A stretch of DNA of 64,000 nucleotides from Novilysobacter antarcticus (lineage in GTDB: Bacteria; Pseudomonadota; Gammaproteobacteria; Xanthomonadales; Xanthomonadaceae), in the NCBI RefSeq assembly GCF_019802285.1, contig NZ_JAIEUJ010000003.1, forward strand, positions 1 through 64,000. The letters run 5' to 3'. Positions 30,002 through 49,755 of the stretch are shown here, in pieces. The notes beneath the pieces were generated by a model. It was not told the origin of the DNA and did no database searches. It worked only from the letters and a program-made list of their open reading frames with translations. Positions within the stretch are counted from its first letter, which is position 1; each line of letters opens with the position of its first letter. Both the position numbers and the translations under genes were made by a program.

Positions 30002-32146
<2,145 letters not shown>

Positions 32147-32287
32147 GGCCGCATTGGAACATGGACGGCCGCCAGCGACCAGAGTTGCCTCAAGATTTGG
32201 CGCAGTCCGGACGACGGAAGCTGTCCGGACAAAGTCGCCGGAGATGCTGTTTGCCTTGCGTATCGGGGGTCAGGGAAATTGCGCCGA

Positions 32288-32293
32288 TAAAAT
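32288..32293 (+). promoter_or_regulatory. Candidate -10 element for the ilv leader
   Basis: TAAAAT lies about 38 bp before the leader ATG, which leaves room for a short 5' untranslated region with the AGG at 32321. No convincing -35 sits at 17 bp. A separate TTGACA at 32296-32301 is a better -35 but would require a poor -10 and the second leader ATG at 32364. Tentative. Confidence 0.3.
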
Positions 32294-32330
32294 AGTTGAC
32301 AGCGGCGCCACCGCATGATTAGGTCGACTC

Positions 32331-32492
32331 ATGACGCAGCGCAGCATCCATCCCGCCGGAACCATGACGGCCCCGCCTCCGGCACCGCCCCATGCGGTCG
32401 ACCGCGGCAGCGCCGCGCTGACCACCGGCCTCCTCATTCTCGTAACCCTCCTTATTACCGTCCTTACAGGCGCGGGGTTCGGGTACGTGTAG
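32331..32492 (+). CDS. Leader peptide of the ilv-leu-thr attenuator
   Basis: A 53-codon frame starting ATG with AGG seven bases upstream. Its second half is a control-codon run read as [17 protein letters not shown]: five Leu, two Ile, two Val and five Thr codons in 16, just before the pairing segment of the antiterminator. The stop at 32490-32492 lies beyond that segment. This is the architecture of ilv/leu/thr leader peptides: a ribosome starved for one of these amino acids stalls in the run and favours antitermination. The internal ATG at 32364 would give 42 residues and is an alternative start. The peptide itself probably has no function. It is too short and low in similarity for homology-based detection. 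Confidence 0.88.
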
Positions 32493-32550
32493 ACCACACA
32501 AACCCAGTAACAGGAACCGGACCCCGCGCCCCAAAAGGCGCGGGGTTTTT
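32469..32550 (+). terminator. ilv attenuator: terminator and antiterminator
   Basis: Three segments can pair in two ways. Segment 2 (GGCGCGGGGTTCGG, 32469-32482) lies in the last leader codons. Segment 3 (CCGGACCCCGCGCC, 32517-32530) can pair with segment 2 with one wobble, or with segment 4 (GGCGCGGGGTT, 32537-32547). Pairing 3:4 makes a 9-bp GC stem with a 6-nt loop and five T, an intrinsic terminator. Pairing 2:3 prevents it. Segments 2 and 4 are the same sequence for 11 bases, so the choice is strictly exclusive. Confidence 0.9.
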
Positions 32551-32617
32551 CGTTTCAGGCATCGCGATTCCCTCCATCCACCCAGCCGGAACCGCCGGCA
32601 GCGAAAGGAAACCCAAC

Positions 32618-34348
32618 GTGAGAAGCAACGCCATCAAGTCAGGCCCCGCCCATGCCCCGGCCCGCGCCATGCTGCGCGCCACCGGCATGGACGATGCGGC
32701 GATCGCCAAGCCGCTGGTTGCGATCGTGCACACGTGGACGGATGTCTCGCCGTGCAACATCAACCTGCGCGATCTGGCCCGGCACGCGGCGGACGGCGTG
32801 CGCGAAGGTGGCGGCACGCCGGTGGAGTTCAACACCATCGCGGTCACCGACGGCATCGCGATGGGTAGCGACGGCATGCGTGCCTCGCTGGCCTCGCGCG
32901 AGACGATCGCCGATTCGATCGAGCTGGCGGTGATGGGCCATTGCCTGGACGCGATGGTGCTGCTGGTCGGTTGCGACAAGACGATCCCGGCAGCGGCGAT
33001 GGCGGCCGCGCGACTGGATATCCCCACCGTGATCCTCTACGGCGGCACGATCATGCCGGGCAAGTGCCCGACCGGGGAGAAGTCGCTGACGGTGCAGGAC
33101 GTGTTCGAAGCGGTCGGCGCGCACGCGGCCGGCCACATCAACGACGCCGAGCTGGCGGATGTCGAGCGCCACGCCTGCCCCGGCGCTGGCGCCTGCGGCG
33201 GCCAGTTCACCGCCAACACGATGGCCATGGTCCTGACCTTCCTGGGCCTGTCGCCGCTGCAGCTCAACGACATCCCCGCCACGCATGACGACAAGCCTGG
33301 CGCGGCGCATGCCTGCGGCCGGATGGTGATGGAGCAGCTGGGCCGGGGTGGACCGCTGCCGCGGCAGTTGCTGAGCCCGGTCTCGCTGCGCAACGCCGCC
33401 CGCGCGGTGTCGGCCACGGCCGGCTCGACCAATTGTGCGATGCACCTGTTGGCGATCGCGCACGAGGCCGGCGTGGCCTTCGACCTGGAGGAGTTCCAGC
33501 AGGCGTCGGCGGTCCCGGTCATCGCCGATCTCAAGCCGGGTGGACGCTATACCGCCGCGGAGCTGTTCACCTTCGGCGGCGTGGCGCTGGTCGCCGACGA
33601 GCTGCGCGCCGCAGGCCTGATCGACGACATGCCCACGGTCACTGGCCGCAGCCTGTTCGAGGAGCTGGACGCGTTGCCCGCGGCCGGCCAGCAGGATGCG
33701 GTGCGGCCGGTATCCGATCCGATCAAGCCGACCGGCGGATTCTCGATCCTGTACGGCGACCTCGCCCCGGAAGGCTGCATCGTCAAGTTGGCCGGCCACG
33801 GCCAGAACCATTTTGAAGGCCCGGCGCGGGTGTTCAACTCCGAGGAAAGCTGCTTCGCGGCAGTGCAGGAGCGCACGGTCAAGGCCGGCGACGTGGTGGT
33901 GATCCGATTCGAAGGACCCGCCGGCGGCCCCGGCATGCGCGAGATGCTGGCGGTCACCGCAGCACTGGTCGGCCAGGGCCTGAGCGATGACGTCGCCCTG
34001 ATCACCGACGGCCGTTTCAGCGGCGCCACCCGCGGTTTCATGGTCGGGCACGTGTCGCCGGAAGCCGCCCACGGCGGCCCGATTGCGAAGATCCGCGACG
34101 GCGACGTGATCCGCATCGACGTCGCCACCCGACGCATCGACGTCGATGCCGACCTCGCCTCGCGGACGCCTGCCCGGATCGCACCGCGCGTCACCACCGG
34201 CGTGCTGGCGAAGTACGCGCAGCTGGTCAGCTCGGCCTCGCTGGGCGCGGTCACCGCACCCGGCCCACTGAGCGGCCGCGGCATTCCGGCAACCCTCGTC
34301 ACCGGCGATTCGGCCGGGGAACCCGAAGCCACTCTCGCCACGACCTGA
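32618..34348 (+). CDS. ilvD: Dihydroxy-acid dehydratase
   Basis: A 576-residue IlvD/Edd-family enzyme that dehydrates the dihydroxy acids to 2-oxo acids for valine, leucine and isoleucine. Iron-sulphur ligands are in [18 protein letters not shown] (with the conserved Lys) and [15 protein letters not shown], the three-cysteine arrangement of the shorter [2Fe-2S]-type enzymes rather than E. coli IlvD. The late [20 protein letters not shown] block is typical. The start is GTG at 32618, chosen because AAAGGAA precedes it at seven bases; no ATG is near. It is the first enzyme gene after the attenuator, followed 71 bp later by ilvC. Confidence 0.95.
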
Positions 34349-34419
34349 ATCCCGGCGCGAACCCGATCAACCTCTCCCCCTTCCTTCCATCTTCAACCCA
34401 CTCCACAGGAATCATCCCC

Positions 34420-35466
34420 ATGAGCAACACCGACACCACCGCCCATCGTCCTCGCGTCGCCGTCATCGGTTACGGCAGCCAGGGCCGCGCCCACGCACTG
34501 AACCTGCGCGACTCGGGCTTTGACGTCACCATCGGCCTGCGCCCGGGTGGCCCGACCTCGATCAAGGCGATGGCCGACGGCTTCAGCGTGAGCACGCCGG
34601 CCGAGGCGGTTGCCGGCGCCGAGATCGTCGCGGTGCTGACCCCGGACATGGTCCAGGCCGACCTCTACACCCAGGTGATCGAGCCCAACATCACCCAGGG
34701 CGCGTGCCTGCTGTTCGCCCACGGCTTCAACGTCCATTACGGCCAGGTCACCCCGCGCGCGGATCTGGACGTCGTGCTGGTCGCGCCCAAGGGGCCGGGC
34801 GCACTGGTACGGCGCGAGTTCGAGATCGGCCGCGGCGTGCCGGCGGTGTATGCCGTGCATCAGGACGCCAGCGGCAATGCCGAGAAGCTCGCGCTGACCT
34901 ATTGCGCCGGCATCGGCGGGGCGCGCCAGAACGCGATCAAGACCACCTTCAAGGAAGAGACCGAAACCGACCTGTTCGGCGAGCAGGCGGTCCTGTGCGG
35001 CGGCGCGACCAAGCTGGTCCAGGCCGGTTTCGAGACTTTGGTCGAGGCCGGTTACCAGCCCGAAGTTGCCTACTACGAGTGTCTGCACGAGCTGAAGCTG
35101 ATCGTCGACCTGTTCTACGAGGGTGGCGTCACCCGCATGCACGAGTTCATCAGCGAGACCGCGCAGTACGGCGCGCTGACCCGCGGCTCCTACGTGGTTG
35201 ACGACAACACGCGCGCACAGATGCGCAAGGTGCTGACCGAAATCCAGGACGGCACGTTCGCGCGCCAGTGGATCGCCGAGTACAAGTCGGGCAACGCCAA
35301 CTACCAGGCGTTGAAGCAGGCCGACCTGGATCACCCGATCGAGGTGACCGGCCGCAAGCTGCGCGCGGCGATGCCGTGGTTGGGCGATGCGCCGCAGGCC
35401 GATGCCGCTGCGTCGGCAAACGCTCCCAAGGCGGTGGGCGAGCGCGCCGAGCCGGCCTCGGCATGA
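34420..35466 (+). CDS. ilvC: Ketol-acid reductoisomerase (class I)
   Basis: A 348-residue NADPH-dependent enzyme that isomerises and reduces acetolactate or acetohydroxybutyrate. Seen: the Rossmann motif [18 protein letters not shown] (about 16-33), [17 protein letters not shown], and the Mg-binding [12 protein letters not shown] and [13 protein letters not shown] regions of the knotted C-terminal domain. It is the class I (short) type. The last 25 residues are a low-complexity Ala-rich tail ([13 protein letters not shown]) that normal IlvC lacks. The stop shares the ATGA with the ilvG start. CACAGGAAT is the ribosome binding site. Confidence 0.97.
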
Positions 35467-37226
35467 ACGGCGCGCGCTGGCTGGTGGAGGCACTGTCCGC
35501 GGAAGGCGTGGACACGCTGTTCGGCTACCCGGGTGGCGCGATCATGCCGTTCTACGATGCGTTGTACGGCTGCCCGCTGAAGCACGTCCTGGTCCGCCAC
35601 GAGCAGGGCGCGGCATTCGCGGCAAATGGGTACGCCCGCGCCAGCGGCCGGGTCGGAGTGTGCATCGCCACCTCCGGTCCCGGGGCGACCAACCTGGTGA
35701 CCGGGATCGCCGATGCGATGCTCGATTCGGTGCCGATGGTGGTGATCACCGGCCAGGTGGCCACCACGTTGATGGGCACCGACGCGTTCCAGGAAGTCGA
35801 CGTGTTCGGCATGACCCTGCCAGTGGTGAAGCACAGCTTCATCCCGCGCAGCGTCGACCAGCTGCCCGAGGTGGTGCGCGAAGCGTTCCGGCTGGCCCGC
35901 AGCGGCCGGCCGGGACCGGTGCTGATCGACCTGCCCAAGGATGTGCAGCTGGCGGGGGCGGCGCATTTGCCGGCCCACGTACCCGCTCCGGTGGACCCCA
36001 ACCCGCCGGCAACCAACGTCGACCTGGTGACGGCGCTGGAGCTGCTGTCCAAGGCTCGCCGTCCGGTCATCTATGGTGGCGGTGGCATCGCCCTGGGCGA
36101 CGCGGTGGCCGAGTTCCGCACCTTCGTGGAATCCGTGCAGGTGCCCACGGTGCTGACCCTGCGCGGTCTGGGTGCCCTGCCTGACGCGCATCCGCTGAAT
36201 CTCGGCATGCTCGGCATGCACGGCACGCGGGCGGCCAACATGGCCGTGCAGGAGGCCGACCTGCTGGTGGTGGTCGGCGCCCGCTTCGATGACCGCGCCA
36301 CCGGACGCCTGGACCAGTTCGCGCCGATCGCGAAGGTCATCCACCTGGACGTGGACCCGGCCGAGTTCAACAAGCTGCGTCACTGCGATGCGGTGTTGCA
36401 CGGCGAGCTGCAGCACAGCCTCAACCAGTTGGCCACCGCGATGCCGGAATGCTCGGCGTGGCGGACCACCTGCCAGTCGCGAAAACGCCAGTATGCGGCG
36501 CGCTACGACGCCCCCACCGCCACCGTCTACGCCCCGGCACTGCTGCGGCGGCTGTCGGAGCTCGCGCCGGCGGCCGTGGTCAGTTGCGATGTCGGCCAGC
36601 ACCAGATGTGGGTCGCCCAGCACTGGGGATTCAACGATCCACGCAAGCACCTGACCAGCGGTGGACTGGGCGCGATGGGCTTCGGCCTGCCGGCGGCGAT
36701 CGGTGCGCAGATGGCCGACCCGCAGGCGCAGGTGTTCTGCGTCAGCGGCGATGGGTCCTTCCTGATGAACGTGCAGGAGCTGGCGACCATCGTGCGCTAT
36801 CGGCTGCCGGTGAAGATCGTGCTGCTGGACAACCAGCGCCTGGGCATGGTCCGGCAGTGGCAGGAGCTGTTCTTCGAGCACCGTTATTCGGAAACCGACC
36901 TGTCGGACAACCCCGACTTCGTCGCGGTCGCCGCAGCGTTCGGGATCCAGGCCTTCGCGCTGGACCGCGCGGACGACTGCGAAGCCGCCCTGCAGCGTTT
37001 GATCGCTGCGCCTGGACCGGCGCTGCTGCACGTCTCCATCGACGCCCACGCCAACGTCTGGCCGCTGGTGCCGCCCAACCACAACAACGCACAGATGCTC
37101 CACGAATCCGCGACTCCGGGTGCGACCTCGCCCGCGACCGTCGCCACTCCACCCGCAGCCGCCCCGGCGCCCGTACCCCAACCCCCCTCATCCCACCCGG
37201 AGAACGCACATGCGCTACCAGATTGA
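35463..37226 (+). CDS. ilvG: Acetolactate synthase, large subunit
   Basis: A 587-residue ThDP enzyme that condenses pyruvate with pyruvate or 2-oxobutyrate, the first step common to valine/leucine and isoleucine. Seen: the N-terminal [14 protein letters not shown], the catalytic Glu in [32 protein letters not shown], the FAD/ThDP central domain, and the ThDP-binding [15 protein letters not shown] with the [15 protein letters not shown] segment. The last 45 residues are a Pro/Ala-rich tail beyond the usual end (after PPNHNN). The ATG overlaps the ilvC stop (ATGA), and its own 3' end overlaps ilvM by 17 bp. I call it IlvG rather than IlvB or IlvI because an IlvM-type small subunit follows. Confidence 0.95.
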
Positions 37227-37446
37227 CCTCATCATGCGGCGCGCGGAGGGCGCGCTGGCCCGGGTGATCGGCACCGCCGAACGCCGCGGCTTCCAGCCCA
37301 TCGACGTCGACGGCGGGCTCCAGTCCGACGGCGAGCACTGGCACCTGCGCATGAACGTGGAAGGCCAGCGCTCGGGCGAGGGTTTGCAGGCCCAGCTGCG
37401 CAAGCTGCACGATTGCCTCGCGGTGGAGGTCTCCCCATGTCGCTGA
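37210..37446 (+). CDS. ilvM: Acetolactate synthase, small regulatory subunit (ACT)
   Basis: A 78-residue single ACT-domain protein like E. coli IlvM, the regulatory subunit of acetolactate synthase II. It starts [21 protein letters not shown], typical of the ACT beta-alpha-beta start, and ends in a second helix (EGLQAQLRKLHD). Larger IlvH/IlvN subunits have about 160 residues, so this is the short type, which in E. coli confers weak or no valine sensitivity. GGAGA precedes the ATG at 37210. It overlaps ilvG by 17 bp upstream and ilvE by 10 bp downstream, so translation is coupled on both sides. Confidence 0.92.
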   Translation: MRYQIDLIMRRAEGALARVIGTAERRGFQPIDVDGGLQSDGEHWHLRMNVEGQRSGEGLQAQLRKLHDCLAVEVSPCR

Positions 37447-38342
37447 CCGACGCCGCCGGCAACCCGGTGCTGCAATTGTGGTTTGACGGCGAGCTGGTCC
37501 GGGCCGATGCGCCGCTGGCGCCGCTGACCACGCATGCCCTGCATTACGGCAGCGGCGTGTTTGAGGGCATCCGCAGCTACGAAACCGCCGATGGCGGCTC
37601 GGCCGTGTTCCGCCTGCCCGAACACATGGAGCGGATGCGCAAGGGCTGTGAGCTGCTGGGGATCGACTTCGACGTCCAGCGCGCCACCGATGCGACCTTG
37701 CAGGTGCTGCGCGCAAACCGCCAGAGCGCGGCCTACATCCGGCCCCTGGCCTGGTGCGGCACCGGCTCGATCGGCCTGGACGTGGCGCCGCTGAGCAAGC
37801 ACCTGATGGTCGCCACCTTCGGCACCGTGGTGCACCTGTCGGGCAGCGCGGTGAAGCTGGGCGTGTCGTCGTGGCGGCGCAATCCGGCTACCTCGCTGCC
37901 GCCACTGAAGCTGTGCGGGGCGTACGTCAACTCGATCCTGGCCAAGCACGAGGCCAAGACCCGCGGCTTCGACGAGGCCCTGTTTGTCGACGAGGCGGGC
38001 ATGGTCGTGGAGTGCACCGGGGCCAACGTGTTCATGCTCAATGGCGACAAGCTGACCGCTGTGGAGCACGCCGACGCCCTGCCCGGCATCACCCGCGACA
38101 CGGTGATCGCGTTGACCGGTGCCGAGTCTCGCGCGGTCCCGCTGGCCGAGCTGATGGAGGCCGACGAGGTCTTCGTCTGCGGCACCGCGGCGGAAGTGAC
38201 GCCTATCAACATCCTCAACGAGCACCGCTTCGCATCCGACAAACGCGGCCGGGAAATCGCCCAGCTGTACCGCGACGTGGTCACCGGCGTGGACACCAGT
38301 CACCGCGCGTGGCTGACGGATGTAGGCCTGCCCCGTGACTGA
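37437..38342 (+). CDS. ilvE: Branched-chain amino acid aminotransferase
   Basis: A 301-residue class IV PLP aminotransferase that makes Leu, Ile and Val from their 2-oxo acids with glutamate. Seen: LTTHALHYGSGVFEGIRSY (28-46), the catalytic lysine Lys158 in LKLCGAYVNS, the DEALFVDEAGMVVECTGANVFML substrate segment (in part), and the C-terminal VFVCGTAAEVTPI PLP-phosphate loop. Length and pattern match IlvE rather than D-amino acid transaminase. The ATG at 37437 overlaps ilvM by 10 bp and its stop overlaps the ilvA start by 8 bp. Confidence 0.95.
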   Translation: MSLTDAAGNPVLQLWFDGELVRADAPLAPLTTHALHYGSGVFEGIRSYETADGGSAVFRLPEHMERMRKGCELLGIDFDVQRATDATLQVLRANRQSAAYIRPLAWCGTGSIGLDVAPLSKHLMVATFGTVVHLSGSAVKLGVSSWRRNPATSLPPLKLCGAYVNSILAKHEAKTRGFDEALFVDEAGMVVECTGANVFMLNGDKLTAVEHADALPGITRDTVIALTGAESRAVPLAELMEADEVFVCGTAAEVTPINILNEHRFASDKRGREIAQLYRDVVTGVDTSHRAWLTDVGLPRD

Positions 38343-39432
38343 GGCAATGGCCCTTGCAGGTGTGAATGCTTCCGCCGTGCTGGCGGCGCAGGCGCGGTTG
38401 CGGCCCTACCTGGCCGCAACGCCCCTGCACTATGCCGAACGCTTCGGCTGCTGGTTGAAGCTGGAAAACCTGCAGCGCACGGGTTCCTACAAGGTGCGTG
38501 GGGCAATGAACGCGTTGCTGGCGATGCGCGAGCGCGGCGATCAGCGTCCGGTGATCGCCGCGTCGGCCGGCAACCATGCGCAGGGGCTGGCCTGGGCCGG
38601 CTACCGGCTGCGGGTGCCGGTCATCGCAGTCATGCCCAACAACGCGCCGCAGACCAAGATCGCCGGTGTCGCCCACTGGAGCGCCACCGTCCGCCTGCAT
38701 GGCGACACCTATGACGAGGCCAAGGCCTTCGCCGCCGAGCTGGCCGAGCAGAACGACTACCGCCTGCTGTCGGCCTTCGACGATCCCGACGTGATCGCCG
38801 GCCAGGGCACCGTTGGCCTGGAGATGGCCGCGCTGGCACCTGACGTCGTGCTGGTGCCGATCGGTGGCGGCGGGCTGGCCTCCGGCGTGGCGCTGGCGCT
38901 GAAGTCGCAGGGCGTGCGCATCGTCGGCGCCCAGGTCGAAGGCGTGGACTCGATGGCGCGCGCGCTGCGCGGCGACTTCGAGCTGCGCGAGAGTGCCGCC
39001 ACCCTCGCCGACGGCGTCCGGGTCAAGGAGCCGGGCCTGCTTACCCGCCAACTGCTGGCCGAGCTGCTGGACGACATCGTCATTGTGCGCGAGGCCGAGC
39101 TGCGCGAGACGCTGGTCCGGCTCGCGCTGGAAGAGCACGTCATCGCCGAAGGTGCCGGCGCGCTGGCCCTGGCCGCCGGCCGCCGGGTCGCCGGGCGGCG
39201 CAAATGCGCGGTCGTGTCGGGCGGCAACATCGACGCCAGCGTGCTGGCCCAACTGCTCTCCGAGGTCCGCCCGCGCGCACCGCGCCGCCCACGTCGTCGC
39301 AGCCGCGACATCGCGCCGCCCACCCATACCCCTGCGGTACGCCCCCTTTCCCCTGCCAGCACGGCCTCCGCGCCGTCCCGCCCCGTGGACGAACCCACGG
39401 CAGCGCCCACTCCCGAGGTAGTTCCAGCATGA
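38335..39432 (+). CDS. ilvA: Threonine dehydratase without ACT domain
   Basis: A 365-residue PLP enzyme that deaminates threonine to 2-oxobutyrate, the first committed step to isoleucine. Lys53 in GSYKVRGAM is the Schiff base, [13 protein letters not shown] the phosphate-side loop, and [15 protein letters not shown] the glycine loop. After about residue 310 there is no IlvA-type regulatory (ACT-like) domain. Instead there is a basic then Pro/Ala-rich tail of about 55 residues ([13 protein letters not shown] onward). It is therefore of the short TdcB-like catalytic form, yet sits in the biosynthetic operon, so feedback by isoleucine may be lost or moved elsewhere. Start GTG at 38335 overlaps ilvE; ATG 38347 is an alternative. 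Confidence 0.88.
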
Positions 39433-42400
39433 GCACCCACGAACCCGACGTAGTCATTACCAAACCTGTAGCGGCCGAGCACGTACGCATCTTCGACACC
39501 AGCCTGCGCGATGGCGAACAGTCCCCCGGCTGCAGCATGACCGCGCCGCAGAAGCTGCGTTTTGCCCACGCGCTTGCCGATCTCGGCGTGGACGTGATCG
39601 AGGTCGGCTTCCCGGCCAGCTCGGAGGCGGAAGTCGAGGCCACCCGGCGGATCGTGCGGGAAGTGCGGGGCTCGACCCTGGCGGCACTCGCGCGATGCCA
39701 CGCCGGCGACATCCAAGCCAGCGTACGCGCCCTGGAAGGTGCCGAAGACGCGCGCATGCATGTGTTCCTGTCCACCAGCCCGCTGCATCGCGAACACAAA
39801 CTGGGCCTGAGCAAGGAGCAGGTGATCGAGCGCGCGGTGATGGGCGTGGAAATGGCAAGGCGCTACTTCGACGACGTCGAGTTCTCCGCCGAGGATGCCC
39901 TGCGCACCGAGCCCGAGTTCCTGGTCGAGGTCTGCAGCGCGGCCATCGCCGCCGGCGCGACCACGCTGAACATTCCCGACACGGTCGGCTACACCACGCC
40001 GGCGGAAATCCGCGCGCTGTTCGAGTACCTGCGCGCCAACGTGCGTGACGCGGAGCGCGCGGTGTTCAGCGCCCACTGCCACAACGACCTGGGACTGGCG
40101 GTCGCCAACAGCCTGGCGGCGATCGAGGGCGGGGCGCGGCAGGTCGAGTGCACGGTCAACGGCATCGGTGAGCGTGCCGGCAACTGCGCGCTGGAAGAGC
40201 TGGTGATGGCGCTGAACGTGCGCCGCAGCTACTTCAACGCGACCACCCGCATCGATACGCGCCGGCTGGTGCCGACCTCGCGCCTGCTGTCGCGGATCAC
40301 CGGCATGCACGTGCAGCGCAACAAGGCGATCGTCGGCCAGAACGCGTTTGCCCACGAGTCCGGCATCCACCAGCACGGCATGCTCAAGCACCGCGGCACC
40401 TACGAGATCATGCGTCCGCAGGACGTGGGCTGGGAGGAGTCGCAGATGGTGATGGGCCGCCACAGCGGCCGCGCCGCCCTGAGCGACCGGCTGCAGACCC
40501 TGGGCCTGGCGGTCGACGACACCCGCCTGAACGAGGTCTTCGAAGCGTTCAAGGTGCTGGCCGAGAAGAAGCGCGAGGTCTTCGACGCTGACCTGGAGAC
40601 GCTGGTGCTGGGTACCGATGCATCGGTGCGACGCGGCTTCCGGCTGCTGCGGGTGCACTCCTCCACCGGGGTCGGTGACGGCTGGCTGCCGACCGCCAGC
40701 GTGCGCCTGACCAAGCCGTGCGGCGCGGTCGCCGAAGAGGCGGCCGTCGGCGACGGACCCGTGCATGCGTTGTTTGCCGCACTGTCGCGGGCTACGGAGA
40801 TCCCGCTGGAGATCGACAGCTTCCAGATCTCCAGCATCACTGCAGGCGATGACGCCCAGGGCCAGGCCAGCGTCGTGGCGACCCTGGACGGCGTCGAGCA
40901 CACCGGCTCGGGCACCAGCACCGATATCCTGGAAGCCTCCGCGCTGGCGTGGCTGGACATCGCCAACCGCATCCACCGTGCCGGCAGCGGCGCGCCGCGC
41001 ACCCTGTTCGACAAGCTGTGGGACAGCCATCTGGTCAGCCCGGAGAGCGAGGCCTCGCCCGCTGTCCTGTACATCGACCTGCACCTGATCCACGAGGTCA
41101 CCACGCCGCAGGCGTTCACCGAGCTGGATGCGCGCGGATTGAAGGTACGCCGCCCGGAGCTGACCAAGGGCACGCTGGACCACTCCACCCCGACCCTGCC
41201 GCGCAACGCGGACGGCAGCCTGCCCTACGCGACGCCCGAAGCCGAGAAGCAGGTCGCGACCCTGCGCGACAATGCGGCGCGCCACGGCATCGAACTGTTC
41301 GATTTCGACAGCGACCATCGCGGCATCGTCCACGTGATCGGACCCGAACTGGGCCTGACCCAGCCTGGCATGACGGTGGTCTGCGGCGACAGCCACACCG
41401 CCACCCACGGCGCGTTCGGCGCGCTGGCGTTCGGCATCGGCACCAGTGAGGTCGGCCACGTGCTGGCTACCCAGTGCCTGCTGCAACGCAAGCCGCGCAC
41501 GCTGGCGATCACCATCGACGGCCAGCTGGGCCCGTCGGTCACCGCCAAGGACCTGATCCTGCACGTGATCGGGGTCATCGGCGTCAACGGCGGCACCGGC
41601 CACGTGATCGAGTACCGCGGCAGCGCCATCCAGGGCCTATCGATGGATGAGCGGATGACGGTATGCAACATGTCGATTGAAGCCGGCGCCCGCGCGGGCC
41701 TGATCGCTCCCGATGAAACCACCTTCGCATACCTGCGCGGCAAGCCGCGCGCGCCGCAGGGCGAGGCGTTCGAACAGGCCGTCGCGCGCTGGCGCCAGCT
41801 GCGCAGCGACGAGGGCGCGCGCTTCGACCGTGAGGTCCGGATCGATGCGGCCGACATCCGGCCCACCGTGACCTGGGGCACGCACCCCGGCCAGGTGACC
41901 GCGATCGATATGCCACTGCCGCCCTCGGGCAGCGTTGACGACACCAAGGCGCTGGCCTACATGGGTTTCACCGGTGGCCAGCCGCTGGCAGGACAGCCGG
42001 TGGACGTGGTGTTCATCGGCAGTTGCACCAACTCGCGTCTGGACGACCTGCGCCAAGCGGCGGGGATCCTGCGCGGCCGCAAGGTGCACCCCCGCGTGCG
42101 CATGCTGGTGGTACCCGGTTCGGTGCAGATCAAGCGCGACGCCGAGGCCGAGGGGATCGACCGGATCGTCCTGGACGCCGGCGCCGAGTGGCGCGAGCCG
42201 GGATGCTCGATGTGCATCGCGATGAACGGTGATCTGGTCGCTCCGGGGCAACTGGCGGTGTCCACCAGCAACCGCAACTTCGAAGGCCGCCAGGGCCAGG
42301 GGGCACGCACCGTGCTCGCCTCTCCGCTGACCGCCGCGGTCTGCGCCGTGCGCGGGGAGATCACCGACCCGGTCGCGTTCCTGCGTGAGCAGAACCCGTC

Positions 42401-42455
42401 CCCACCGGCAGTGGATGCACAACCCCGCACCATCGCCGCGGAGGCAACGCCATGA
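39429..42455 (+). CDS. leuA-leuC: LeuA-LeuC fusion: 2-isopropylmalate synthase and isopropylmalate dehydratase large subunit
   Basis: One uninterrupted 1008-residue frame. Residues 1 to about 517 are a complete Leu[14 protein letters not shown] (22-34), HCHND (H216, H218), [10 protein letters not shown], and the C-terminal regulatory domain ([15 protein letters not shown]). Residues about 524-1008 are a complete Leu[35 protein letters not shown], and the [4Fe-4S] cysteines C866, C926 and C929 (GSCTNSR, GCSMC). A linker of about six residues (AGSGAP, 518-523) joins them. In the LeuC frame near the junction I see no ATG, GTG or TTG and no ribosome binding site, so a separate LeuC start is unlikely. 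LeuA makes 2-isopropylmalate, the substrate of LeuC with LeuD. The start overlaps the ilvA stop and the end overlaps leuD (both ATGA). A sequencing indel remains possible. Confidence 0.85.
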
Positions 42456-43033
42456 GCGCCATCACCGAACTGCGCTCGCGCACCGTTGTCCTGCGCGAAC
42501 GCAACATCGATACCGACCAGATCATCCCCGCGCGCTTCCTCACCACCACCGAGCGCAAGGGTCTGGGCCGGTTCGCCTTCCATGACTGGCGGCAGCGCGC
42601 CGACGGCACGCCGGACCCGGCATTTCCCTTCAATGACCCGGCCAACCGCGATGCGCAGATCCTGGTTGCAGGCCGCAACTTCGGCTGCGGCTCATCGCGC
42701 GAGCACGCGCCGTGGGCCCTGCTCGACCTCGGCCTGCGGGCGGTGATCAGCGCCCAGATCGCCGACATCTTCCGCAGCAACGCGCTCAAGAACGGCCTGC
42801 TGGCGATTGTCCTGCCCGACGCGGTGGTTGATGAGCTGCTCGCCCAGCCCGGCATCGAGCTGCACATCGACGTGGCGCGCGGCACCGTCCGCCTGCCGGA
42901 CGGGCGGGAGTTCGAGTTCCCGCTGGATGAATTCGCCCGCACCTGCCTGCTGGAAGGCGTCGACCAGCTCGGCTACCTGCTCAAGCAAGAACCCGCCATC
43001 GCTCGCTACGAGGAACAGAACCATGCACGCTGA
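42452..43033 (+). CDS. leuD: 3-isopropylmalate dehydratase, small subunit
   Basis: A 193-residue LeuD, the swivelling domain that completes the isopropylmalate isomerase active site with LeuC. It has [13 protein letters not shown] (18-30), the conserved [17 protein letters not shown] (74-90) that contacts substrate, and [12 protein letters not shown]. It is separate from the LeuA-LeuC fusion, so the working enzyme would be LeuAC plus LeuD. The ATG overlaps the leuAC stop (ATGA) and the end overlaps leuB by 11 bp. Length is typical for proteobacterial LeuD. Confidence 0.95.
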
Positions 43034-44111
43034 CATTGTTGTCCTGCCCGGCGACGGGATCGGCCCGGAAGTCACCGCCGCCGCGGTGCAGGCACTGCGC
43101 GCGGTCGAGTCCGCCTACGGGCACCGCTTCAGCTTCCACGAGCATTTGATCGGCGGCTCCGCGATCGACGCCACCGGTGAGGCCTTGCCGCAGAGCTCGC
43201 TGGATGCGTGCCGCACCGCCGACGCGGTACTGCTGGGCGCCGTGGGCGGACCGAAGTGGTCCGATCCCAAAGCGAGCGTTCGCCCCGAGCAGGGCCTGCT
43301 GGCGCTGCGCAAGGCGCTGGGGCTGTACGCCAACCTGCGCCCGGTCAAACCGCACCCGGCCGCGCTGGGCGCCTCGCCGATCAAGCCACACCTGCTCAAC
43401 GGCGTGGATCTGGTCGTGGTGCGCGAGCTCACCGGCGGCATCTATTTCGGCCAGAAACAGCGCACCGCCGACAGCGCCAGCGACCTGTGCGAGTACAGCG
43501 TCGGCGAAGTCGAGCGCGTCGTCCGCCGCGCCGCCGAACTGGCCCGCCAGCGCCGCGGCCACCTGACCTCGGTGGACAAGGCCAACGTGCTGGAAACCTC
43601 GCGGCTGTGGCGCGAAGTGGCCACCCGCGTGGTCGCCGAGGAGTTTCCCGATGTCACCCTGGAGCACCAGCTGGTGGACTCCATGGCCATGCACCTGCTG
43701 TCGCGGCCGCGCGAGTACGACGTGATCGTGACCGAGAACATGTTTGGCGACATCCTCACCGACGAGGCCTCGATGCTGGCCGGTTCGATGGGCCTGCTGC
43801 CCTCCGCGTCCCTCGGTGACGAAGGTGCTGGCCTGTACGAGCCGATCCACGGCTCGGCGCCGGACATCGCCGGGCGCGGCATCGCCAACCCGTATGCGGC
43901 GATACTCAGTGCGGCGATGCTGCTGCGCCACTCGCTCGGCCTGGACGACGAGGCGGACTGCGTGGAGCAGGCGGTATCGCAGGCACTGGACGCAGGCGCC
44001 TTCACCGCCGACATCAACGGCACCAGCGCTGCGATCGGCACACAGGCCGCCACAGCGGCGGTACTGGAGCACCTGCAGGTCCGCTGTTACGCCGTTTGCA
44101 TGCGCGACTGA
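43023..44111 (+). CDS. leuB: 3-isopropylmalate dehydrogenase
   Basis: A 362-residue NAD-dependent beta-decarboxylating dehydrogenase that gives 2-oxoisocaproate, the last step before transamination to leucine. Seen: [10 protein letters not shown] (8-17), the substrate arginines in [26 protein letters not shown], and the metal-binding [16 protein letters not shown] with the NAD loop [15 protein letters not shown]. The adenine-side residues fit an NAD rather than NADP enzyme. The ATG at 43023 overlaps leuD by 11 bp. It is followed by thrA after a 45 bp gap without terminator or leader. Confidence 0.96.
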
Positions 44112-44156
44112 ACCGCAAGCCCCGCCCTCCCCCACGCAGACCAACAGGATTCCCGA

Positions 44157-46691
44157 ATGCCCTCCCCCCTTGCCCCGCCGCGCACCGATCCGGGGCAGCC
44201 CCTCGTACCCGGCCTCAAGCCGGTCCACGTGCACAAGTTCGGGGGCAGCAGCCTTGCCGACGCCGCCCACTACCAGCGCGTGGCCGCCCTCCTCGACAGA
44301 CTGGATGCGGCGGCACCCGGCCTTCAGTTCGTCGTCGTCTCGGCAATGCACGGCGTCACCGACACCCTGATCGCCCTGGCCGATGCCAGCATGTCCGGTA
44401 CGGACTGGAAGCCCGCCTTCATGGCACTTCGCCAGCGCCATCTGGACGCGGCCGATGTGCTGGATGCCGACGCCACGCATGGCCTCCACGCCTGGCTGGA
44501 AGCGCAGTTCGCCGCGCTGGGCGACACGCTGACGGCGATGGCGGCCGGACAGGCGCGCAGCGAGGCCGACATCGCAGGCGTGCATGGTCTGGGCGAGGTC
44601 TGCTCCTCGCGGCTGTTGCAGGTCGCGCTGGGTGGCGCCGATGCCGGCTGGGGCCGCCTGGACGCGCGCGACGTGCTGGTCGCCAACCCCGGCGAGCTGG
44701 GTGTCACCGTGGACTGGGAGGCCAGCCAGGCGCGCCTTGCGCAATGGTCGGAGCGCCAGGACTACTGCGCGCGTGGCCGCGTCATCACCGGCTTTGTCGC
44801 CCGCGATGGCGACGGCGCGAACACCACGCTGGGCCGCAATGGCAGCGACTATTCGGCAGCCGCGTTCGGACGACTGCTGAATGCCACCGAGCTCACCATC
44901 TGGACCGACGTGGATGGGGTGCTCAGCGCCGACCCGCGACTGGTACCCGATGCGGTGTGCCTGGATTCGATGTCCTACGCCGAGGCCAACGAGCTGTCCT
45001 ATTTCGGCGCCAGCGTGCTGCACCCCCGCACCATGGCCCCGGCACTGCAGGCCGGACTGGCGATACGGATCCGCAACACCCGCAACCCCGACGCAAAAGG
45101 CACGGTGATCAGCCTGGAGTCCGCCCCGGCCGCCTCGCCGGTGAAAGGCCTCAGCCTGGTGGAGCGAATGGCGTTGCTGGAACTCAGCGGCGCGGGCCTT
45201 ATCGGGGTGCCGGGCACCGCCGAGCGGATGTTCGCCGCCCTGCACGCCGCCGGCGTTTCGGTGACGATGATCTCGCAGGGTTCCAGTGAGCATTCGATCT
45301 GCTGCGTGGTGCGCGAGGCGCAGGCCGCCCAGGCGCGCGAGGCGGTCGCCAGTGCCTTCGCCGATGCCATCGAGGAGGGGCTGGTCGCCGGCGTGGACGT
45401 GACCCCGGGAATCGCCATCCTCGCAGCCGTGGGCGACGGCATGGTCGGTTCCCCCGGTGTTGCCGCACGGCTGTTTGACGGCCTGGCAAAGGCCCGCGTC
45501 AACATCCGGGCGATCGCCCAGGGCGCGAGTGAGCGCAACATCTCTGTGGCGCTGGACGCCGCCGACGCCGTGCGCGGTCTGCGCGCCGTGCATTCGGCGT
45601 TCTGGCTGTCACCGCAAACACTCTCCATTGGCCTCATCGGGCCTGGCAAGGTCGGGCGCGCGCTGCTTGGCCAGCTGTCCGAATCACTGCAGCGTCTCGC
45701 CGGCGACGGCCAGCGCGGCATCGACCTGCGGCTGCGCGCGATCGCCAACAGCCGCCGCATGAGCCTGGCGCCGCGCAACCTGCCGCCGCAGGAGGCATTG
45801 GCAGCTCTGGAAGCGGGCGAAGCCCTGGATCTGGATGCGTTCGCGCACCATGTACGCGCCAGCCATCTGCCGCACGCACTGATCGTGGACTGCAGCGGCA
45901 GCGATGCCATCGCCGATTACTACCCACAGTGGCTCGCCGCCGGCATCCACGTCGTCACCCCGAGCAAGCACGCCGGCAGCGGCGATCTGGCCCGCTACCG
46001 GGCGATCCGCGCCGCCACCCGCCACGGCGGCCGCTTCCTCTACGAAGCCACGGTCGGTGCCGGTCTGCCGGTCATCATGACCCTGCGCAACCAGCTCGAC
46101 ACCGGCGATGAACTGACCGCCTTCGAGGGAGTGCTCTCCGGCACGCTGGCGTGGCTGTTCAACCGCTTTGATGGCAGCGTGCCGTTCTCCGCACTGGTGC
46201 GCGAGGCGCGCGAGCTGGGCTATACGGAACCGGACCCTCGCGACGACCTCTCGGGCATCGATGTCGCGCGCAAGCTGGTGATCCTCGCCCGAGAGGCCGG
46301 CCGCATGCTGTCGCTGGAGGATGTCGACATCGAAAACCTGGTGCCGCCGGCCCTGCACAACGTGCCGCTGGAAGAATTCCTCGCCCGGCTTGAGGAGCTG
46401 GACGCACCGCTGCAGGCGCGTCTGGACGAGGCGCTGGCCAGCGGTGGGGCATTGCGCTACCTCGCCCGCATGGACAACGAAGGTCGCGCCAGCGTCGCGC
46501 TGGTGGTGCCGCCGACGGGACACGCCAGCCTGTACAGCCGCCTGACCGACAACCTGATCCAGTTCCACACCCGTCGATACACCGACAACCCGCTGGTGGT
46601 CCAGGGCCCCGGCGCCGGCCCGGAGGTCACCGCTGCCGGCGTATTCGGCGACGTGCTCGCGATTGCGCAAGCACTCGGGGCAAGGCTGTGA
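44157..46691 (+). CDS. thrA: Bifunctional aspartokinase / homoserine dehydrogenase
   Basis: An 844-residue protein. The N-terminal half (to about 300) is aspartate kinase: [12 protein letters not shown] (23-34), the [13 protein letters not shown] segment and the [13 protein letters not shown] loop. Two ACT domains follow (about 315-470: [33 protein letters not shown]). The C-terminal half is homoserine dehydrogenase: [13 protein letters not shown] Rossmann motif, [22 protein letters not shown] and GTLAWLFNR. It supplies homoserine to ThrB. The layout equals E. coli ThrA/MetL. ACAGGAT is the ribosome binding site. The 3' end shares a GTGA with thrB. No separate threonine attenuator precedes it. 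Confidence 0.96.
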
Positions 46692-47662
46692 GCGCGGTGC
46701 TGGGCACCTCCGCCCAACGTCCGCGTTCGCCCGCCCGCGAGGGTGCGACGGCGTTCGCGCCGGCCTCCGTGGGCAACATCGGCGTGGGGTTCGACCTGCT
46801 CGGCCACAGCATCGAGGGGCCGGGCGACCGCGCCTTCGTGCGTCGGATCGACGCCCCCACGGTGACCATCACCGGCATCGACGGCGACAGCGACGGCGCA
46901 GCGCAGCTGCCGCGCGAGGCGGAGCGCAACACCGCCGGTCGCGCGCTGATGGAGTTGCGTGCGCAACATGGCATCGCGCACGGCTTCGAGCTGCGCCTGC
47001 ACAAGGGCATCCCGCTGGGTTCGGGTCTTGGCGGCTCGGCGGCCTCCTGCGTGGCGGCGCTGGTGGCGGCCAATGCGGTGCTCGACCAGCCGCTGACCCG
47101 CGACCAGCTGTATCCGCTGGCCCTGCTGGGTGAGTCGGTGGCCAGCGGCAGCGTGCACGGCGACAACGTCGCACCGATGCTGTTTGGCGGTGTCGTGTTG
47201 GCAACGCCGACCCGGGCCATTCCACTGTCGGCACCGCCGTTGGTGTGTGCGGTGGTGCATCCGCACCATGTGCTTGAGACCAGGCTCGCACGCGAGGCGT
47301 TGTCGGCCCCCTACCCGCTGCGGCAGGTGGTCCAGCACAGCGAGCACCTGGCGCTGTTCCTGACCGGTCTGGCGCGTGGTGACCTCGCCCTGATCGCTGA
47401 AGGCTTGCGCGACGTGCTGGTCGAACCCCGCCGCGCATCTCTGGTCCCGGGGTTTGCCGAGGTCAAGGCCGCCGCACTGGCCCATGGCGCACTGGGCGCC
47501 AGCATCTCCGGCGCTGGTCCCAGCGTGTTCGGCTGGTTCACCAGTGCGGCGCAGGCGCAGATCGCCGCGGCGGCGATGCAGGCGGCTTTTGCCGACGTCG
47601 GCCTCGACAGCGACGTGCATATCTCGCCGGTCAACGGCCCCCGCGCGGAGCTGGTGGCATGA
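46688..47662 (+). CDS. thrB: Homoserine kinase
   Basis: A 324-residue GHMP kinase that phosphorylates homoserine with ATP. Signatures: [17 protein letters not shown] (about 23-39), the ATP loop [14 protein letters not shown] (about 109-122), the [16 protein letters not shown] segment and the late [12 protein letters not shown] motif. The start is GTG at 46688, in a four-base overlap (GTGA) with the thrA stop. The 3' end overlaps thrC by four bases (ATGA). These overlaps indicate coupled translation of the three threonine genes. Confidence 0.95.
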
Positions 47663-48960
47663 AGTTCGCCAGCACCCGCGGACAGGCGCCACAGGTCGGC
47701 ATCGACGACGCACTTGCCGCCGGTCTGGCCCCGGATGGCGGCCTGTATGTGCCGGTGACCATCCCGCAGGTCACCATCACACATGCCGGCGCCACGCTGG
47801 CGGACACCGCGGCGGTCCTGCTCGCGCCCTACTTCGAAGGCTCGCGGCTGGCCGCACAGCTGCCCGACATGTGCCGGTCCGCGTTCGACTTCCCGGTCCC
47901 GCTGCGACCACTGAAACAGTCCGGCGATTATTTGCTGGAGCTGTTCCACGGCCCGACCGCCGCGTTCAAGGACATCGGCGCGCGCTTCCTCGCCGAGGCG
48001 CTGTCGCGATTGCGCGCGCCCGACGCTCCGCCGACGACCATCCTGGTCGCGACGTCCGGCGATACCGGCGCCGCGGTCGGTGCAGCCTTCCATCGCCGTG
48101 AAGGCTTCCAGGTGGTGATCCTGTATCCCGATGGCCGCGTATCGCCGCGTCAGGCCCACGGTCTGGGCTGCTTCGGTGACAACGTGCAGGTGCTGCGCGT
48201 GGACGGCACCTTCGATGACTGCCAACGACTGGTGAAGCAGGCGCTGACGGATGCCTCGCTGCGTGAGACGGCCGTGCTGGGTTCGGCCAACAGCATCAGT
48301 CTGGGCCGCTTGCTGCCGCAGATGGCGTACTACGCGCACGCCTCGCTGCAGTTCCGCGCCGAGCACGGCGAACCGCTCAACTTCGTCATCCCCACCGGCA
48401 ACCTCGGCAACGCCCTCGCCGCGTGGCTGGCCCGCAGCATGGGCCTGCCGATCGGCGAGATTGTGCTGGCCAGCAACGCCAACGACGTGTTGCCACGCTA
48501 CTTCGCCGGCGCCGATTACCAGCCGCAGCCCGGCAAGGCGACGATCGCCAACGCGATGGATGTCGGCGCACCGAGCAACTTCGAGCGCCTGCGCTGGTGG
48601 CATGACGATGACGCCGCTGTGCGCGCATCAATGCAGGCCTGCAGCGTCGACGATGACCAGATCCGGCAGGCGATCAGCGCGGCGCCGGACCGCCACGGCG
48701 TGGTTCCCTGCCCGCACACCGCGATCGGCCTCCATGCGCTGGAGGGACTGCGTGCGAAGGGCGACCGGCGTCCGTGGGCGGTCGTCGCAACCGCGCATCC
48801 GGCCAAGTTCGAGACCGTGGTCGAACCGCTGGTCGGTCACGTGGTTGCGCCGCCACCGGCGCTCGCCACCGCGCTGGCGCGTCCAGCCTCGGCCGAGCCG
48901 CTCGGACTCGACTACGCCGCGTTCCGTGACGGCCTGAGCGCACACACTGCGACCGCGTGA
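47659..48960 (+). CDS. thrC: Threonine synthase
   Basis: A 433-residue PLP enzyme that converts O-phosphohomoserine to threonine. The Schiff-base lysine is Lys104 in [14 protein letters not shown]. The phosphate loop is in [14 protein letters not shown], and the [21 protein letters not shown] segment completes the PLP site. The N-terminal [31 protein letters not shown] is the usual ThrC opening. It is the last gene of the ilv-leu-thr superoperon; a perfect hairpin lies 14 bp after the stop. Length fits E. coli-type ThrC. Confidence 0.96.
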
Positions 48961-48973
48961 ACGATGGAAGGAG

Positions 48974-49005
48974 CTTGCCGGCGACAACCACCTGTCGCCG
49001 GCAAG
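48974..49005 (+). terminator. Perfect hairpin after thrC (terminator-like, no U-tract)
   Basis: A 13-bp perfect inverted repeat (CTTGCCGGCGACA, 48974-48986, and its complement 48993-49005) with a 6-nt loop, 14 bp after the thrC stop. It is very stable but has no T-run behind it, so it is either a Rho-assisted end, an RNA 3'-protecting stem, or a weak terminator of the superoperon. Confidence 0.6.
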
Positions 49006-49056
49006 CGGCCACCGCGCGGCATGGCAACCCCGAGCCAAACCGGCTAGCGTGGCTGG

Positions 49057-49755
49057 ATGAAACTTTTCCCTATCGCCTTCCCCGCGGCGCTTGCCGTCGC
49101 CCTCGCCGCCTGCAGTCAGCCGGCCACAGAAACCATCAGTGACGCCGAAGTCACGGCGACCGCGTCAACGACCGCCGATCCCCAGCAAGTCTTCTTTCAA
49201 CACCTCACCGCACTGTGCGGACAGGCCTTTGAAGGCCGTGTGCTGACCGACCGCCCCGAAGCCGCCGCAGGGCCGGATCCGTTCCGCGACCAGCCCCTGA
49301 CGATGCATGTCCGCGACTGCAGCGAGCAGGAGATTCGCATCCCCTTCCACGTCGGCGACGACCGCTCGCGCACCTGGGTGCTTACCCGCACCGCCGACGG
49401 CCTGCGCCTGAAGCACGACCACCGTCTGCAGGACGGCAGCGACGACCCGGTGACCATGTATGGCGGCGATACCGCAAACGCGGGCAGCGCGAACCGGCAG
49501 GAATTTCCGGTCGATGCGTTCTCGCAGGCGATGTTCACCCGCGAGGGCATGGACGTGTCCAACAGCAACGTGTGGGCGATTGAGATCGAGCCGGAGCAGA
49601 GCTTCGTCTACGAACTGGCCCGCACCGACCAGGACCGCCTGTTCCGGGTCGGCTTCGACCTGACCAAACCGGTTGCCGCTCCGCCGGCGCCGTGGGGCGC
49701 GGAAGATGCGGTCGATGCCGGTGACGCGGAGGAAATCCGGGCAGCTGAAGGCTAG
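49057..49755 (+). CDS. Hypothetical lipoprotein
   Basis: A 232-residue exported protein with a signal peptide and lipobox (VALAAC, Cys19). The mature part has a short Thr/Ala-rich linker and then a domain with ALCGQAFEG, a MHVRDCSEQEIRIPFHVG stretch, a W-x-LTRT strand and LKHDHRLQDGSDD. These features resemble uncharacterised lipoproteins of the Xanthomonas/Lysobacter group, but I do not know a function. Two cysteines (in ALCGQ and RDCSE) could pair. The C-terminus is acidic and low-complexity. It is preceded by the thrC hairpin and convergent with sucD across the hairpin repeats. Confidence 0.75.
   Translation: MKLFPIAFPAALAVALAACSQPATETISDAEVTATASTTADPQQVFFQHLTALCGQAFEGRVLTDRPEAAAGPDPFRDQPLTMHVRDCSEQEIRIPFHVGDDRSRTWVLTRTADGLRLKHDHRLQDGSDDPVTMYGGDTANAGSANRQEFPVDAFSQAMFTREGMDVSNSNVWAIEIEPEQSFVYELARTDQDRLFRVGFDLTKPVAAPPAPWGAEDAVDAGDAEEIRAAEG

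What the first reader, a model, noticed from the sequence alone, without database searches (positions are those of the whole stretch)
39429..42455. LeuA and LeuC joined in one 1008-residue protein
The frame runs without stop from a full 2-isopropylmalate synthase, including its regulatory domain, into a full isopropylmalate dehydratase large subunit. A linker of about six residues joins them and no start codon for LeuC lies near the junction. LeuA's product is LeuC's substrate, so the fusion could channel 2-isopropylmalate, and it may tie the leucine-inhibited LeuA oligomer to the Fe-S enzyme. LeuD stays separate. Both halves keep all recognised catalytic and cluster residues. I know of no characterised LeuA-LeuC fusion.
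Basis: partly seen in the sequence, partly recalled or inferred. Interest (0 to 1): 0.88.

Follow-up and report, generated by a model that had tools for sequence, protein, structure and literature searches.

The report
Two leucine-pathway enzymes made as one
In a small group of related bacteria of the Lysobacter family, the first two enzymes of leucine synthesis are encoded as one long protein instead of two, a real and inherited gene fusion whose benefit (if any) is still untested.

Summary
One uninterrupted frame (39429-42455, 1008 aa, 108 kDa) joins a complete 2-isopropylmalate synthase (LeuA, regulatory domain included) to a complete isopropylmalate dehydratase large subunit (LeuC). It is not a sequencing error: the same in-frame junction is present in 4 of the 10 genomes held for the genus, two of them single-contig, at 94-99% protein identity, with strong purifying selection on both halves. 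The other 6 species have no LeuA or LeuC. The four fused species form one clade (100/100), so the fusion arose once. 0 of 78 named relatives with both halves is fused, and sampled scans of the family (395 genomes), order (299), class (369) and phylum (398; sets overlap) listed no other stop-free fusion. Compared with the nearest unfused relative, about 49 bp net, with the LeuA stop and LeuC start, have gone. No second LeuA was found in the genome, so the fused protein most likely supplies both activities, with separate LeuD completing the isomerase; a distant archaeal-type LeuC/LeuD-like pair elsewhere might back up the LeuC half. Channelling and allosteric coupling are untested. It is a new combination of a familiar kind: fused consecutive pathway enzymes.

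The parts
39429..42455 (+). leuAC fusion gene (1008 aa + stop)
   Evidence: same fusion in G002, G003, G007
39483..40286 (+). LeuA catalytic (HMGL-like) domain, residues 19-286; RDGEQ 27-31 and HCHND 216-220 present
40329..40571 (+). LeuA linker domain (HCS_D2), residues 301-381
40575..40973 (+). LeuA leucine-regulatory/dimer domain (LeuA_dimer), residues 383-515
40974..41003 (+). junction, residues 516-525 ([10 protein letters not shown]): last LeuA helix runs into a short linker; LeuA stop and LeuC start are absent
40995..42386 (+). LeuC (isopropylmalate dehydratase large subunit), residues 523-986; GSCTN 864-868 and GCSMC 925-929 hold the probable Fe-S cysteines
   Evidence: role of the cysteines recalled from the aconitase family
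42387..42452 (+). C-terminal tail, residues 987-1008, fast-changing in all pairs except G000-G007
42452..43033 (+). leuD, separate small subunit, ATGA overlap with leuAC stop
43023..44087 (+). leuB
38335..39432 (+). ilvA (threonine dehydratase), ATGA overlap with leuAC start
32331..32492 (+). leader peptide rich in Thr/Leu/Ile/Val ([16 protein letters not shown]), probable attenuator of the operon
32519..32548 (+). intrinsic-terminator-like hairpin after the leader peptide, before ilvD (the scan found 5 such sites in 31000-49500 against 6.4 expected in shuffles; the case rests on conservation in four species)

Best explanation
A small deletion (net about 49 bp against the nearest unfused relative) in the ilv-leu-thr operon of one lineage of a Lysobacter-like genus removed the leuA stop codon, the intergenic stretch and the leuC start codon in frame. 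The product is one bifunctional protein: its N-terminal half condenses 2-ketoisovalerate with acetyl-CoA to 2-isopropylmalate under leucine feedback, and its C-terminal half, once separate LeuD has docked and the Fe-S cluster is built, isomerises it to 3-isopropylmalate. Since LeuA is a dimer through its regulatory domain (recalled), the likely assembly is a LeuA dimer carrying two LeuC-LeuD units in fixed 1:1 ratio. The fusion arose once, before four species diverged, and both halves are maintained. Shown: the fusion, its conservation, single origin, purifying selection, sole LeuA found. Inferred: the deletion as the event, both activities, oligomer, 1:1 ratio. Not shown: channelling or allosteric coupling; the simplest view is that fusion was tolerated during operon compaction rather than selected for channelling.
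For: Full domains above curated cut-offs. Same in-frame junction in 4 of 10 genus genomes, the other 6 having no LeuA or LeuC match beyond weak ones to related enzymes. Only one LeuA in the own genome. dN/dS 0.03-0.13 for LeuA and 0.06-0.11 for LeuC over six species pairs. Fused species monophyletic 100/100 in the rpoB tree of 25 genomes and in a LeuA+LeuC tree of 47 of 81 rows, sister to Lysobacter psychrotolerans 100/99. Unfused relatives show a stop plus own LeuC start at the junction. Model: LeuA helix 500-519, short loop, LeuC helix 526-533; the model matches LeuA structures (3rmj, 1sr9/3fig) and IPM isomerase/homoaconitase large subunits (4kp1, 4kp2).
Against: No expression or enzyme data. 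Gly703 to Ser at a position invariant in 94 unfused LeuC rows could alter LeuC. The own genome also holds an archaeal-type LeuC/LeuD-like pair (L002; large subunit over the cut-offs of NF001614, TIGR01343 and TIGR02086, small subunit over that of TIGR02087), whose large subunit is matched in the four fused species and not in the six others; it might supply isomerase activity, which would relax the need for the LeuC half (though that half's dN/dS stays low). An internal GTG 44-45 codons before the LeuC core exists in all four, so some separate LeuC by internal initiation or proteolysis cannot be excluded. The structural model is of modest quality (mean pLDDT 79.9, pTM 0.57) and the last 15 residues of 33 LeuA rows were misplaced in its input, so it says nothing safe on domain arrangement.
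Confidence: 0.83

Rival explanations
1. Sequencing or assembly error: a lost stretch or frameshift joined two separate genes.
For: The junction is exactly where unfused relatives have stop and start codons close together; several of them have both genes in the same frame.
Against: Four separately assembled species carry the same junction, with synonymous differences around it, two in single-contig genomes.
Confidence: 0.01
2. The fusion is selected because tethering channels 2-isopropylmalate from LeuA to LeuC or lets leucine binding at the LeuA regulatory domain also throttle LeuC.
For: Product of one half is substrate of the other; LeuC hangs directly on the last helix of the leucine-regulatory domain; retained across four species with dS up to about 0.30 over LeuA and LeuC.
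Against: No kinetic evidence; 2-isopropylmalate is stable and diffusible (recalled); a single origin in one small clade, while none of the relatives examined has it; neighbouring genes also overlap by 4 bases (ilvA/leuA, leuC/leuD), so compaction alone may explain it.
Confidence: 0.12
3. The fused frame works as two proteins: LeuC is also made from an internal GTG or released by proteolysis.
For: In-frame GTG 44-45 codons upstream of the LeuC core in all four fused species; glycine/serine-containing linker.
Against: That GTG codes for a residue inside the regulatory domain, and no convincing ribosome-binding site was seen in the 18 upstream bases printed (by eye); the linker is only about six residues and its sequence is nearly identical in the four species.
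Confidence: 0.08
4. The LeuC half has become a passenger or regulatory appendage, the isomerase step being done by the archaeal-type LeuC/LeuD-like pair elsewhere in the genome.
For: That pair exists and its large subunit is matched only in the four species that make leucine; Gly703 to Ser in all four LeuC halves.
Against: LeuC half dN/dS 0.06-0.11, 152 of 155 near-invariant columns kept, cognate leuD retained next door at 92-97% identity in G002 and G003.
Confidence: 0.04

Closest known systems
LeuA, 2-isopropylmalate synthase (TIGR00973 / NF002086; structures 1sr9, 3fig, 3rmj)
   Same: All three LeuA domains, 135 of 135 near-invariant columns kept; 83% and 81% identity over the LeuA core to L025 (Lysobacter psychrotolerans) and L007 (L. 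niastensis).
   Different: Its own C-terminal tail and stop are replaced by a linker into LeuC.
LeuC, isopropylmalate dehydratase large subunit (TIGR00170 / NF004016; archaeal structures 4kp1, 4nqy)
   Same: Full Aconitase domain with GSCTN and GCSMC motifs; 82% and 80% identity over the LeuC core to L025 and L007.
   Different: Lacks its start codon and first few residues; Gly703 to Ser in all four fused; N-terminus tethered to LeuA.
Fused consecutive enzymes of amino-acid pathways (recalled: TrpCF, HisIE; in this operon ThrA itself is aspartokinase-homoserine dehydrogenase)
   Same: Enzymes of one pathway joined in one chain.
   Different: Here an allosteric dimeric synthase is joined to only the large subunit of a two-subunit Fe-S enzyme; this pairing was not found elsewhere in the searches made.
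LeuC-LeuD / aconitase type fusion (PMC11237513, passages read)
   Same: A leucine-pathway Fe-S hydratase subunit in a fusion.
   Different: That joins the two subunits of one enzyme; here LeuD stays separate and the partner is the preceding enzyme.

Membership tests
LeuA (TIGR00973 leuA_bact) | Whole-protein score over curated cut-off (598.7 bits) | tested here: met
   658.2 bits, residues 19-513
LeuA (TIGR00973 leuA_bact) | HMGL-like catalytic domain plus LeuA_dimer regulatory domain | tested here: met
   Pfam 19-286, 301-381, 383-515; near-invariant columns 135 of 135 kept against 100 unfused rows
LeuA (TIGR00973 leuA_bact) | 2-isopropylmalate synthase activity, leucine inhibition | not testable with these tools
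   needs enzyme assay
LeuC (TIGR00170) | Score over curated cut-off (560.25 bits), full length | tested here: met
   643.1 bits, residues 523-980, profile 2-462 of 466
LeuC (TIGR00170) | Fe-S cluster cysteines and invariant residues | tested here: met
   GSCTN 864-868, GCSMC 925-929; 152 of 155 near-invariant columns kept against 94 unfused rows, exceptions 650, 703 and 711; the role of the cysteines is recalled
LeuC (TIGR00170) | Partner small subunit LeuD encoded nearby | tested here: met
   leuD 42452-43033, 233.8 bits against cut-off 167
Gene fusion (single polypeptide) | Same frame, no stop, conserved across species | tested here: met
   4 of 10 genus genomes; 6 of 10 lack the genes; junction printed for the three others and the window
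Gene fusion (single polypeptide) | One ~108 kDa protein in the cell | not testable with these tools
   needs proteomics

The most novel reading that the evidence does not exclude
The fusion makes a leucine-responsive two-step enzyme: a LeuA dimer holding two LeuC-LeuD units, in which leucine binding to the regulatory domain directly attached to LeuC controls both the first committed step and the isomerase, with 2-isopropylmalate handed over locally.
Probability: 0.12. Interest if true: 0.72.

Novelty: new variant of a known kind. Interest (0 to 1): 0.5.

Why it matters
Leucine synthesis is among the best studied pathways, and its first two enzymes are separate proteins in every other case whose junction I read (78 named loci; seven same-frame neighbours). 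A natural, stably inherited LeuA-LeuC fusion is a ready-made test of whether tethering the feedback-inhibited entry enzyme to the next Fe-S enzyme changes flux, leucine sensitivity or cluster dependence, and a starting point for engineering leucine or isopropylmalate production. The setting is also a tidy evolutionary case: in one genus LeuA and LeuC are either fused (4 species) or absent (6), and in the five of those six whose site I read the ilvD-thrA block is missing between the same flanking genes.

Tried and rejected
Assembly error: rejected by four-species conservation. A hidden separate LeuA or LeuC elsewhere in the genome: no second LeuA. Fusions elsewhere: 0 of 78 named loci with both halves (79 fetched; L069 held LeuC only; a few others hold only part of LeuA). 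Family 395, class 369, phylum 398 and order 299 genomes gave no other stop-free spanning match among the listed rows. All are even samples of larger groups; the family list was cut at the bottom; class and phylum used a cut-off of 1e-250 and order 1e-275. Very diverged or reversed-order (LeuC-LeuA) fusions could be missed, and only Pseudomonadota were covered. The seven same-frame spanning matches with stops (L113-L115, L188-L191) all have the stop at the junction (an earlier motif check had read only three of them). Plasmid records: 386 with a match, 25 listed. Three were opened: the two Bacteroidaceae ones (H16, H21) have stops between the genes, and in the Gemmatirosa record (H1) the two halves lie in different frames by motif.

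Rows dropped: of 105 loci searched for the conservation count, 100 gave LeuA and 94 LeuC stretches long enough; some rows are the same genome under a name and a handle. The LeuA+LeuC tree used 47 of 81 rows, 44 of them different. My first junction print missed L086-L088, L113-L115 and some others because it kept only plus-strand matches; searches mended that. A first search for the leader region failed on a motif and was replaced by alignment.

Re-acquisition of the operon by transfer versus several losses: the fused clade is nested among species lacking LeuA/LeuC (G004 is its sister at 100/100, the next fork 89/91). The flanks thiC and thrB lie next to each other in four of the five sites I read (G004, G006, G009, G001); in G005 about 5 kb of other DNA lies between them; in G009 only residues 6-231 of thrB were matched. 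G008 was not read. The LeuA+LeuC tree fits vertical descent and ThrB groups with the genus, but the ThiC tree is poorly resolved and puts G056 among the genus rows. Left open.
Full report
What is there. The frame 39429-42455 (+) is open for 1008 codons. Residues 16-518 score as 2-isopropylmalate synthase and 523-986 as isopropylmalate dehydratase large subunit, both well above curated cut-offs. Pfam finds all three LeuA domains and a complete Aconitase domain. The gene starts with an ATGA overlap with ilvA and ends with an ATGA overlap with leuD. The order is thiC (opposite strand), ilvD, ilvC, ilvG, ilvM, ilvE, ilvA, leuAC, leuD, leuB, thrA, thrB, thrC (ilvM and ilvE score under their NCBIfam equivalog cut-offs, ilvM over Pfam's for its ACT domain).

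Is it real? Yes. Of 10 genomes held for the genus, 4 (G000, G002, G003, G007) carry one stop-free match over the whole protein (the two more distant from residue 15 on) at 94-99% identity. The other 6 have no LeuA or LeuC, only weak matches to related enzymes. The junction reads [10 protein letters not shown][G/S][11 protein letters not shown] in all four, with synonymous differences. G002 and G003 are single-contig assemblies. Over six species pairs dN/dS is 0.03-0.13 in LeuA and 0.06-0.11 in LeuC; of the regions measured, the N-terminal 18 and C-terminal 23 residues change faster, except between the near-identical G000 and G007. The own genome has no other LeuA. Its second LeuC-like gene is 39% identical in the matched part, falls over the cut-offs of aconitase/IPM isomerase families of the archaeal kind, and is paired with a small-subunit gene of that kind. 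It is matched in the four fused species and not in the other six, so a backup or a separate role for it is open.

How it arose. 79 named loci were fetched; 78 hold both halves and 0 of 78 is fused. In the Lysobacter loci a stop follows the LeuA core after 42-75 bases, and where the junction was printed LeuC has its own start. In Lysobacter psychrotolerans, the sister in the LeuA+LeuC tree (100/99), the gap between the LeuA core and the LeuC core is 70 bases and the two genes are in different frames; here it is 21 and they are in register. So a net loss of about 49 bases took away the LeuA tail, its stop and the LeuC start. In the rpoB tree of 25 genomes the four fused species form one clade (100/100) inside the genus: one origin.

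Wider search. In 395 genomes sampled from the family, 300 had a match at the cut-off. Seven listed matches spanned both halves in one frame: the four fused, and three with stops. Samples of 369 class, 398 phylum and 299 order genomes gave no other stop-free spanning match; the order sample gave four more with stops. All seven with stops have them at the junction. These sets overlap and lie in one phylum. Of 386 plasmid records with a match, 25 were listed and three opened; none of the three is fused.

Are both halves able to work? All 135 near-invariant LeuA columns (100 unfused rows) are kept in the four. In LeuC 152 of 155 are kept (94 rows): 650 Ile to Val, 711 Leu to Met in one species, and 703 Gly to Ser in all four. 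The last is the one change that might matter. AlphaFold with 72 aligned rows gives mean pLDDT 79.9 and pTM 0.57, with the last LeuA helix (500-519), a short loop and the first LeuC helix (526-533). The input misplaced the last 15 residues of 33 LeuA rows, so I take no domain arrangement from it. The model matches solved LeuA and IPM isomerase/homoaconitase structures.

How it most likely works. It is one bifunctional chain, with LeuD supplied separately. Known LeuA enzymes dimerise through the regulatory domain (recalled; 1sr9/3fig appear), so two LeuC-LeuD units per LeuA dimer is the expected assembly. A fixed 1:1 ratio follows from the fusion. Channelling and leucine control of LeuC are attractive but unsupported. 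The tight gene overlaps on both sides suggest that compaction of the operon is enough to explain the event.

Setting. A leader peptide (32331-32492) ending in ...[23 protein letters not shown], followed by a terminator-like hairpin (32519-32548), lies before ilvD. Its control codons, the downstream complementary segment and the hairpin are nearly unchanged in the three other fused species, so the operon is probably controlled by ribosome-mediated attenuation. The six sister species gave no match to IlvC (1e-20) or ThrA (1e-100), and their best LeuB match is only 39-41% identical; the other genes of the block were looked for only in the five stretches read. In those five, ilvD, ilvA, leuD, leuB, thrA and thrC are absent between thiC and the 49168 gene, while thrB is kept, directly beside thiC in four and about 5 kb away in G005. 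The block sits next to thiC in G056 too, whose LeuA and LeuC are identical to those of L. psychrotolerans, so this looks like loss from an old site, either several times or once with later recovery.

Literature. Six searches of the open PMC library on LeuA/LeuC fusion, bifunctionality or channelling (listings with starts of abstracts only) showed no LeuA-LeuC fusion. Passages of PMC11237513 mention LeuCD; in PMC1963480 (passages) the word fusion does not occur. Two further searches, on attenuation and on auxotrophy, gave nothing on this case in their listings. Subscription papers and protein databases were not searched.

Verdict. Real, inherited, functional-looking fusion of two consecutive enzymes; a new combination of a familiar kind. 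Interest 0.5.

Noticed in passing
32331-32548 (+): Leader peptide rich in Thr, Leu, Ile and Val followed by a terminator-like hairpin upstream of ilvD, with a complementary antiterminator segment; nearly unchanged in G002, G003 and G007. Looks like a multi-amino-acid attenuator for the ilv-leu-thr operon; no Rfam family matched it up to E = 5.
   Followed up: partly
32046-32150 (-): TPP riboswitch (59.3 bits, gathering 54.3) at the 5' end of the thiC frame (30002-32059, minus strand), so the true thiC start is probably further in.
   Followed up: partly
L201, L202, L203, L204, L205 (G004, G006, G005, G009, G001): In five leucine-less sister species the genes tested from ilvD to thrA, and thrC, are missing between thiC and the 49168 gene, yet thrB is kept there in all five (matched in part in G009); why it is kept without thrA and thrC at that site is unexplained.
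   Followed up: partly
LeuC residue 703 (window 41535-41537): Gly to Ser in all four fused proteins at a position that is Gly in 94 of 94 unfused LeuC rows; may be compensation or drift.
   Followed up: no
L002 (G000:C4:253256-254479): Archaeal-type IPM isomerase/homoaconitase-like large and small subunit genes side by side; the large subunit is matched in the four fused species and not in the six leucine-less ones. Its role is unknown.
   Followed up: partly
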